Assembly: GCF_900637975.1 (NCBI RefSeq)
Contig: NZ_LR134477.1
Location: 558,001 to 622,000 of the forward strand
Length of the DNA stretch: 64,000 nt
Source: Actinomyces viscosus
GTDB taxonomy: Bacteria > Actinomycetota > Actinomycetes > Actinomycetales > Actinomycetaceae
Reading direction: 5' to 3'
The position numbers were made by a program, and so were the translations under genes. This document shows, piece by piece, positions 53,453 through 55,120 of this stretch (position 1 is its first letter; the number at the start of each line of letters is the position of its first letter). Below the pieces are notes generated by a model that was given only the letters and a program-made list of their open reading frames with translations, had not been told where the DNA came from and searched no databases.

Positions 53453-55120
53453 GTGGCTTCTTCCACAGTGACGCGCTCCCGCGCCGAGCTCACTGACGAC
53501 GTCGACGAGACCACGCTCGACGATGAGGACTTCGACCTCGACGACGAAGGAGACGACGACACCGACGACTCCGACTACGACGATGAGGACTTCGACGACT
53601 CCGACGAGGACGACTCTGACGATGAGGATGAGGACTCCGACGAGGATGAGGACCAGGAGGACGACGACTCGGAGACGCAGGTCGTCCAGGACGATGACGG
53701 CCCCGCCCCCGAGCTGCGCGACTACTACCTGGACGTGAGCCTGGAGGAGAACGGCGACGGCTCCAAGCGCAGCCCCTTCAACAACCCCGCATCGCTCAAG
53801 GGTGTCCGGCTGGCCCCCGGGGCGACGCTCTTCGTGCGCTCGCGCACGATCGTGGAGAACCTGGAGATCGCCGGGCACGGCACCCTGGAGGAGCCCATCA
53901 CCCTGGCGCCCTACGGCCACGGCCCGGTGCCCCGGTTCGTCATCGGTGACTCCGCCCCGATGGTGGCGCGCGACTACCTGGCCCAGAACGGTTACATCTT
54001 CCGCGGCTGGGTCATCAAGGGCATCAAGATGCAGCCCTCGATCGCGGCCCTGACCGGTGAGCTCGAGCGCATGCGCCGGGAGGAGGCGGAGAAGGCCGCC
54101 TCCAAGAAGTCCGGCAAGCGCGGCAAGTCCCAGGACAAGGACGGCTCCTTCACGGTCTCCGACTCCGACGAGGGCGATGAGCCCGCCCAGCGGGTCGTCA
54201 CCGCCGGCGCCACCGCGGACCCGGTCAAGGACTACCTCAAGCAGATCGGTAAGGTCGCGCTGCTGAACGCCGAGCAGGAGGTCGAGCTCGCCAAGCGCAT
54301 CGAGGCCGGCCTCTACGCCGAGCACCGCCTGGCCGAGGAGGGCAACGACCTGCCGGCCAAGCTGCGCCGCGAGCTGCACTGGGTGGCCCAGGACGGTCAG
54401 CGCGCCAAGAACCACCTCCTGGAGGCCAACCTGCGACTGGTGGTCTCCCTGGCCAAGCGCTACACGGGCCGCGGCATGCTCTTCCTGGACCTTATCCAGG
54501 AGGGCAACCTGGGCCTCATCCGCGCCGTCGAGAAGTTCGACTACACCAAGGGCTTCAAGTTCTCCACCTACGCCACCTGGTGGATCCGTCAGGCCATCAC
54601 CCGCGCCATGGCGGACCAGGCCCGCACCATCCGCATCCCGGTGCACATGGTCGAGGTCATCAACAAGCTCGCCCGCGTGCAGCGCCAGATGCTCCAGGAC
54701 CTGGGCCGTGAGCCCACCCCGGAGGAGCTGGCCGTCGAGCTGGACATGACCCCGGAGAAGGTGGTCGAGGTCCAGAAGTACGGGCGTGAGCCGATCTCCC
54801 TGCACACGCCCCTGGGTGAGGACGGCGACTCCGAGTTCGGTGACCTCATTGAGGACTCCGAGGCCGTGGTGCCCGCCGACGCGGTGAGCTTCACCCTCCT
54901 TCAGGAGCAGCTGCACGCCGTGCTGGACACCCTCTCGGAGCGTGAGGCCGGTGTCGTCTCCATGCGCTTCGGCCTGACCGACGGCCAGCCCAAGACCCTC
55001 GACGAGATCGGCAAGGTCTACGGGGTCACTCGCGAGCGCATCCGCCAGATCGAGTCCAAGACCATGTCCAAGCTGCGCCACCCCTCGCGCAGCCAGGTCC
55101 TGCGCGACTACCTGGACTGA
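53453..55120 (+). CDS. sigA: primary RNA polymerase sigma factor with acidic and beta-helix-like N-terminal segments
   Basis: 555 aa from GTG 53453 (SD AAAGGA); the frame upstream is a shadow. Residues 15-83 are almost pure Asp/Glu/Ser. Residues 90-165 ([42 protein letters not shown]) read like the first coils of a right-handed beta-helix. A Lys/Glu linker follows to about 250. Sigma-70 regions: 1.2 at 255-300 ([11 protein letters not shown]), 2 at 316-400 ([10 protein letters not shown]), 3 at 400-475, 4 at 485-550 ([21 protein letters not shown]). Group 1 factor that directs housekeeping transcription. The inserted segment is unusual. Confidence 0.96.

What the first reader, a model, noticed from the sequence alone, without database searches (positions are those of the whole stretch)
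53714..54052. Beta-helix-like segment inserted in the primary sigma factor
Seen: one uninterrupted ORF (53453-55120) has an acidic tail, then about 75 residues ([42 protein letters not shown]), then all sigma-70 regions. The segment has the order of the N-terminal cap of right-handed beta-helix polysaccharide lyases: YY-start, xPGDTxxxRxGT, GT-PITI-Y-G-P. Known sigma factors have no such domain here. Inference: a domain recruited to the housekeeping sigma factor, possibly to bind a partner or modulate region 1.1.
Basis: partly seen in the sequence, partly recalled or inferred. Interest (0 to 1): 0.8.

Follow-up and report, generated by a model that had tools for sequence, protein, structure and literature searches.

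The report
Glycosidase module inside housekeeping sigma factor
In the bacterial genus Actinomyces, the protein that tells RNA polymerase where to start genes carries a folded piece otherwise seen in secreted-type sugar-processing proteins, so a surface-protein part seems to have been moved into the core gene-reading machinery.

Summary
ORF 53453-55120 is one 555-aa primary sigma factor (SigA/HrdB): acidic tail (14-83), module (89-193, DNA 53717-54031), conserved segment (194-222), linker, regions 1.2-4. The module lies in SigA of 49 of 49 sampled genomes of the genus; I found it in no other sigma factor. Its likeness to right-handed beta-helix proteins is real: a profile of sigma modules alone matches GH136 lacto-N-biosidases and a PL6 lyase in the PDB, and the window segment matches secreted-type proteins at E down to 1.2e-13. 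The closest relatives are not lyases but a free-standing ~105-aa module of GH29 alpha-L-fucosidases, itself related to the cap of beta-helix proteins; sigma modules nest among these in a tree, with moderate support. AlphaFold gives a folded domain (pLDDT 79.5), but only with relatives in the alignment. Sigma copies lack the Cys pair of beta-helix caps, have more Lys/Arg, are under purifying selection and have sigma-only invariant residues. I read it as a domesticated docking domain in an N-terminal region described as unfolded in other actinobacteria; its partner is unknown. In another genus of the family, SigA holds an unrelated repeat of surface-protein type.

The parts
53453..55120 (+). sigA/hrdB, primary sigma factor, 555 aa, GTG start, stop 55118-55120
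   Evidence: NCBIfam NF004561 792.5 bits (cut-off 582), Pfam sigma-70 regions 1.2, 2, 3, 4
53492..53701 (+). acidic tail, residues 14-83, net charge -47, 67% Asp+Glu
   Evidence: the 75 residues before the module evolve fast, median dN/dS 0.53
53717..54031 (+). recruited module, residues 89-193 (RDYYLDV...VIKGIKM)
   Evidence: median dN/dS 0.23 for residues 89-202
54032..54118 (+). sigma-specific conserved segment [21 protein letters not shown]..., residues 194-222; helix predicted at low confidence
   Evidence: residues 195-204 nearly invariant, 205-212 well conserved in 61 distinct sigma sequences; profile matches of secreted-type proteins end at model position 107 (residue 190) in 28 of 28 modules, and at 116 at the latest; pLDDT under 50 for residues 192-207
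54119..54217 (+). linker, residues 223-255, ending [20 protein letters not shown], similar in SigA of other genera
54218..55117 (+). sigma regions 1.2 to 4, residues 256-555
   Evidence: Pfam PF00140 256-289, PF04542 322-392, PF04539 401-477, PF04545 490-543; median dN/dS 0.056

Best explanation
Identity (about 0.95): residues 89-193 are a domain of secreted-protein origin, homologous to the N-terminal cap of right-handed beta-helix proteins and closest to the free-standing module of GH29 alpha-L-fucosidases; it entered the primary sigma factor once, before the sampled Actinomyces species diverged, and was kept. Mechanism (inferred, about 0.5): it is a domesticated protein-docking domain. The very acidic tail acts as a DNA mimic in the RNA polymerase cleft until a promoter enters, by analogy with region 1.1 of E. 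coli sigma-70 (recalled); the folded module, with new basic and aromatic residues, anchors that tail and the start of region 1.2 to RNA polymerase, to the acidic tail itself, or to a small regulator, and so tunes holoenzyme formation and promoter opening. Shown: sequence family, placement, conservation, absence of the Cys pair, more Lys/Arg than relatives. Inferred: secretion of the relatives (from their domains), the binding partner and the effect.
For: Sigma-only profile A1 matches PDB GH136 lacto-N-biosidases 6kqs (E 7.5e-5) and 7v6m (1.1e-4) and PL6 lyase 7dmk (2.8e-3). Window segment vs proteins of other genera: E down to 1.2e-13, alignments. hhalign: sigma vs GH29-type modules score 126, E 1.4e-22, 106 columns; vs beta-helix caps score 102, E 2.1e-18. 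Tree of 36 modules: sigma clade 100/99, nested among GH29-type modules with 81/81; beta-helix caps a separate clade 100/100. AlphaFold with 67 rows: mean pLDDT 79.5, pTM 0.72; Foldseek's top four are GH136 chains, best E 1.6e-4. Present in 49 of 49 genomes of the genus. Median dN/dS 0.23 vs 0.53 before it and 0.056 in the core. No Cys in the first 75 residues of 59 of 61 distinct sigma modules, two Cys in 115 of 119 and 13 of 14 beta-helix caps. Lys+Arg 12.5 per module vs 6.6-7.7 in the relatives. Precedents for N-terminal function: residues 132-179, mostly acidic, of M. tuberculosis SigA are needed for transcription (PMC10011835, section 9 read); MoaB2 inhibits SigA-dependent transcription and needs the SigA N-terminal domain to bind (PMC11656743, passages).
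Confidence: 0.6

Rival explanations
1. Cytosolic sugar sensor: the module keeps a glycan or sugar-nucleotide site from its ancestors and lets the housekeeping sigma respond to intracellular glycogen or cell-wall precursors.
For: Its nearest relatives sit in alpha-L-fucosidases, mostly beside F5/8 C domains. A sigma factor with a carbohydrate-binding domain exists in ECF52 (PMC5826349, passages).
Against: I saw no report of sugar binding for this module class, but ran no search for it. Residues invariant in 61 sigma sequences and not conserved in relatives (such as K105, K116, S130, H156, P158, V159, R161, F162, R173, F183, K189, K192, M193) are new, not inherited. ECF52 has its sugar domain in a C-terminal extension behind a membrane region; here the module is N-terminal, ahead of region 1.2.
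Confidence: 0.2
2. Inert folded spacer: the module was captured by chance in a tolerant, disordered region and is kept only because it folds and does no harm.
For: The same zone in the 24 SigA proteins read from other genera is mostly low-complexity and variable, and other domains have landed there.
Against: Median dN/dS 0.23 against 0.53 before it; 49 of 49 genomes keep it; sigma-only invariant residues and the conserved segment behind it go beyond keeping a fold.
Confidence: 0.15
3. Motif coincidence: the resemblance to beta-helix proteins is convergent and the segment is an ordinary disordered or sigma 1.1-like region.
For: No library hit with the window segment alone; first AlphaFold job poor.
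Against: The sigma-only profile finds PDB beta-helix enzymes and hits 103 of 121 beta-helix or fucosidase proteins at E <= 1e-3 and 54 of 121 at <= 1e-8, E counted for that set of 121. These were gathered with whole beta-helix or fucosidase queries, whose seeds had, however, been found with sigma queries. The same profile gives no hit better than E 3.5 in 24 SigA of other genera. Alignments run over about 100 columns.
Confidence: 0.03

Closest known systems
Stand-alone module of GH29 alpha-L-fucosidases (no Pfam name)
   Same: Same ~105-aa unit including the tail with a short helix-like stretch and a G-W/F-hydrophobic end; 37% identity over 106 columns to the representative row of the group
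   Different: In extracellular-type proteins with F5/8 C and sometimes cell-wall-binding or S-layer domains; here in a sigma factor, with more Lys/Arg and a different C-terminal continuation
N-terminal cap of right-handed beta-helix proteins (GH136 lacto-N-biosidases 6kqs, 7v6m; PL6 alginate lyases; PF13229 proteins)
   Same: Order Y-[LV]-D...GDG..PFN..LxPG...T...G.GT..PI..YG.G and predicted fold
   Different: No beta-helix repeats follow, Cys pair absent, no enzyme domain
Actinobacterial primary sigma factors (M. tuberculosis and M. smegmatis SigA)
   Same: Regions 1.2-4 and a long N-terminal extension with acidic stretches
   Different: Their N-termini are described as divergent and predicted unfolded (PMC11656743, introduction); here a conserved folded-type module
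ECF52 sigma factors (SCO4117)
   Same: A sigma factor carrying a domain of glycan-protein type
   Different: Alternative ECF type; carbohydrate-binding domain in a C-terminal extension behind a transmembrane region (PMC5826349, passages)

Membership tests
Primary (group 1) sigma-70 factor | Regions 1.2, 2, 3, 4 above curated cut-offs | tested here: met
   (NF004561 792.5 bits, cut-off 582)
Primary (group 1) sigma-70 factor | Single strong copy per genome | tested here: met
   one match at E <= 1e-120 in the own genome; 203 of 213 family genomes have such a match, one each
Primary (group 1) sigma-70 factor | Helical region 1.1 (Pfam Sigma70_r1_1, name recalled) | tested here: not met
   not among the 6 families matched at E <= 10; other actinobacterial SigA are also described as lacking the folded 1.1, so not a bar to membership
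N-cap module of right-handed beta-helix proteins | Profile similarity over the module | tested here: met
N-cap module of right-handed beta-helix proteins | Cap fold | tested here: inconclusive
N-cap module of right-handed beta-helix proteins | Paired Cys (columns 95 and 134) | tested here: not met
   V95 and V134 in the window; 59 of 61 sigma modules without Cys in this part
Right-handed beta-helix protein (PF13229) | Beta-helix repeats following the cap | tested here: not met
   no PF13229 match at E <= 10
GH29-type stand-alone module | Tail with short helix-like stretch and G-W/F-hydrophobic end instead of a beta-helix rung | tested here: met
   clade placement (81/81)
GH29-type stand-alone module | Context with a GH29 domain | tested here: not met
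   a sigma core follows here; GH29 was found in 12 of 13 scanned proteins of the group
ECF52 sigma factor | ECF-type core plus C-terminal extension with membrane region and sugar domain | tested here: not met
   group 1 core, module N-terminal, protein ends 12 residues after the region 4 match

The most novel reading that the evidence does not exclude
The N-terminal extension of primary sigma factors in Actinomycetaceae is a landing zone where modules of secreted or cell-surface proteins are domesticated into the transcription machinery: a fucosidase/beta-helix module in Actinomyces, independently an Ig-like surface-type repeat in the SigA of genus g22 (G128), and Rho_N helix modules in other genera, each giving the housekeeping holoenzyme a new lineage-specific docking or sensing surface.
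Probability: 0.45. Interest if true: 0.85.

Novelty: new variant of a known kind. Interest (0 to 1): 0.72.

Why it matters
The housekeeping sigma factor is essential, and its core here hardly changes between species (mean identity 97%). Yet a whole genus has a domain of extracellular glycosidase ancestry fixed in it, in a region that in actinobacteria is described as unfolded and whose mechanistic functioning as not yet defined (PMC11656743, introduction). A folded module is easier to express, solve and delete than a disordered tail, so it offers a direct test of what the N-terminus of an actinobacterial SigA does. It also shows reuse of a secreted-type domain inside the cell, with traces such as the missing Cys pair and added Lys/Arg.

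Tried and rejected
Second copy in the own genome: the only other own-genome match (E 0.0035, one stop inside) covers no matching gene in the listed frames and is taken as chance. Frameshift or two-gene artefact: rejected; module and sigma core follow in one frame in 29 of 29 named Actinomyces loci. That scan used two sigma-module peptides as patterns, so it could only find close kin.

Sigma-fused module outside the genus: none found. 27 of the other 164 family genomes had a segment match at E <= 0.01. I fetched matches of 14 of these 27 (21 loci with one in the genus): proteins with GH29, F5/8 C, beta-helix or S-layer domains where scanned (11 of 21 scanned, three more), by eye in the rest; the other 13 genomes, with E from 5.5e-6 to 0.009, were not looked at. 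In 24 SigA of other genera (23 genera; L086 cut by its contig end) the sigma profile gives nothing better than E 3.5. Order level: 14 of 396 genomes matched at E <= 1e-6, 7 of the genus and 7 others; of those 7, three were scanned with Pfam and four judged from their sequence. Phylum level: 1 of 396, the own one, at E <= 1e-8.

Full report
What is there. Frame 53453-55120 on the plus strand is open and encodes 555 aa with a GTG start and AAAGGAA upstream. Pfam finds sigma-70 regions 1.2, 2, 3 and 4 between residues 256 and 543; before residue 256 it lists only one match under its cut-off (GlutR_dimer, E 0.089). NCBIfam: NF004561, 792.5 bits with a cut-off of 582. The layout is acidic tail 14-83 (net charge -47), module 89-193, conserved segment 194-222, linker 223-255, core 256-555.

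Conservation. The database search with residues 80-205 found 126 proteins at E <= 1 and listed 120; every listed row bears sigma Pfam domains, and the named ones are Actinomyces. Among 213 genomes of the family, 49 of 49 of the genus have the segment at E below 1e-60 and none of the other 164 does better than 1.2e-13. The sigma core was found in 203 of 213. In the 47 genus genomes whose core place is printed, segment and core lie next to each other on one strand; the other two (G031, G041) have a core match whose place is not printed. A scan of named genomes with two sigma-module peptides returned 29 loci, all of Actinomyces, with the core following in frame in 29 of 29. In 30 sequences (435 pairs) the median dN/dS is 0.53 in the 75 residues before the module, 0.23 in residues 89-202, 0.28 in the linker and 0.056 in the core (simple counting method; saturated pairs and pairs with dS of 0.05 or less left out, 397 to 427 of 435 used). 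The module is thus under purifying selection, weaker than the core and stronger than the tail.

What other genera have there. I read the SigA N-terminus of 24 genomes from 23 other genera: mostly Lys/Ala/Thr-rich and acidic low-complexity sequence with a similar ending (about SDSDxxDEPxQxVxxAGATA) and no module; the sigma-module profile gives them nothing better than E 3.5, against 2e-77 or better in 29 Actinomyces loci, 25 of which are in the profile. Three showed other domains: a repeat that I call Ig-like in L082, and Rho_N modules in L092 and L093.

Homology. With the window segment as query, other genera of the family gave matches up to E 1.2e-13, the best of them in open frames of 1000-2000 aa. 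Twelve fetched proteins aligned over 68-105 residues. With later loci, 28 modules fall in two groups. Group a (14): stand-alone modules, mostly behind F5/8 C domains; Pfam finds the GH29 alpha-L-fucosidase domain in 12 of 13 scanned (L120 is the one without, L037 was not scanned). Group b (14): ahead of right-handed beta-helix regions; PF13229 matched in four of four scanned (L040-L043), in L042 under its cut-off; L111 and L110 resemble GH136 by eye. That these proteins are secreted is inferred from their domains; I predicted no signal peptides. A profile made of sigma modules alone hits PDB chains 6kqs (GH136 lacto-N-biosidase, E 7.5e-5), 7v6m (1.1e-4) and 7dmk (PL6 alginate lyase, 2.8e-3); below that come a tRNA ligase piece at 0.1, alginate lyases 7o84 and 7o7a at 0.27 and IsdA at 1.2. 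A search started from four beta-helix proteins, themselves found with sigma queries, gave 394 proteins of which 120 were listed; together with one fucosidase (P0122) these are 121, and the sigma-only profile hits 105 of them, 103 at E <= 1e-3 and 54 at <= 1e-8, E counted for that set.

Which relative is closest. Profile-profile scores are 126 (group a) and 102 (group b). The difference lies in the tail: sigma [20 protein letters not shown] matches group a endings such as TWEQYLEANALRARGFVVG, while group b continues into the first beta-helix rung. In a maximum-likelihood tree of 36 modules (8 of 26 sigma rows, all 28 others) the sigma rows form one clade (100/99) inside group a (81/81 with eight group a rows, 83/76 with eleven), and group b is a clade (100/100). 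Nesting is favoured, not proven; the sigma stem is long (1.58). Because related modules occur in many other proteins and the sigma form in one genus, transfer into sigma is the simplest direction.

Signs of a change of job. The two Cys that mark beta-helix caps (115 of 119 and 13 of 14 have two) are absent in 59 of 61 distinct sigma modules, but 11 of 14 group a modules lack them too, so the loss may be older than the transfer. Lys+Arg are 12.5 per module against 7.2, 7.7 and 6.6 in the three sets of relatives. Positions invariant in 61 sigma rows but not conserved in relatives include K105, K116, S130, H156, P158, V159, R161, F162, P169, V171, R173, N179, F183, K189, K192 and M193. Residues 195-204 are nearly invariant and 205-212 well conserved; matches of other proteins to the 129-position sigma profile stop at position 107 and at 116 at the latest, so this stretch looks sigma-specific.

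Mechanism. From papers: SigA N-termini in actinobacteria are described as predicted unfolded and their mechanism as not yet defined (PMC11656743, introduction read); M. tuberculosis SigA needs residues 132-179, mostly acidic, to start transcription (PMC10011835, section 9 read); MoaB2 binds M. smegmatis SigA with help of the N-terminal domain and inhibits SigA-dependent transcription (PMC11656743, passages). My reading: tail as DNA mimic (analogy with region 1.1, recalled), module as docking piece that anchors tail and region 1.2 or receives a regulator. Placement, charge and sigma-only residues fit; partner and effect are inferred and untested. A cytosolic sugar sensor and an inert spacer are the rivals.

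Wider pattern. The repeat in the SigA of G128 matches three tandem repeats (45-52% identity) in a 559-aa protein of the same genome that begins with a signal-peptide-like stretch and looks like a D-Ala-D-Ala carboxypeptidase (both my reading), and matches proteins in 14 other genomes of the 213. No Pfam family and no solved structure matched it at a meaningful level. So two unrelated domains of surface-protein type seem to have entered SigA in this family. Rho_N in the SigA of G198 (three copies) and G066 (one copy) adds a third kind.

Novelty. I found no description in six paper searches, which cover open-licence papers only and of which I saw the listings. Database records that have a name call the protein an RNA polymerase sigma factor or subunit, one of them hypothetical protein. 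I rate it a new variant of a known kind: a primary sigma factor with a domesticated glycosidase-type module.

Noticed in passing
L082 (G128) 595-2112, residues ~50-132; L102 566-2242 (-): SigA of genus g22 carries an Ig-like (my label, no Pfam match) surface-type repeat in its N-terminus; the same genome has three tandem copies in a secreted-looking carboxypeptidase-like protein.
   Followed up: partly
L092 (G198) and L093 (G066), SigA N-terminus: Rho_N (PF07498) modules, three and one, in the primary sigma factor of two other genera.
   Followed up: partly
L032-L036, L038, L039, L103-L105, L117, L118: A ~105-aa stand-alone module without a Pfam name recurs in GH29 alpha-L-fucosidases, a possible new family.
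   Followed up: partly
window 55226-55314 +: TPP riboswitch (RF00059, 57.7 bits) downstream of sigA, before thiM-like and thiE-like genes (names by eye) at 55304-56137 and 56134-56796.
   Followed up: no
window 52067-53227 -: Polyprenyl synthase-like gene (by eye) transcribed away from sigA; a similar gene lies beside sigA in L097 (by eye).
   Followed up: no
L038 (G046): One genus genome has both the sigma module and a GH29 protein with the module; at E <= 0.01 the other 48 show only the sigma copy, apart from a chance second match in the own genome.
   Followed up: no
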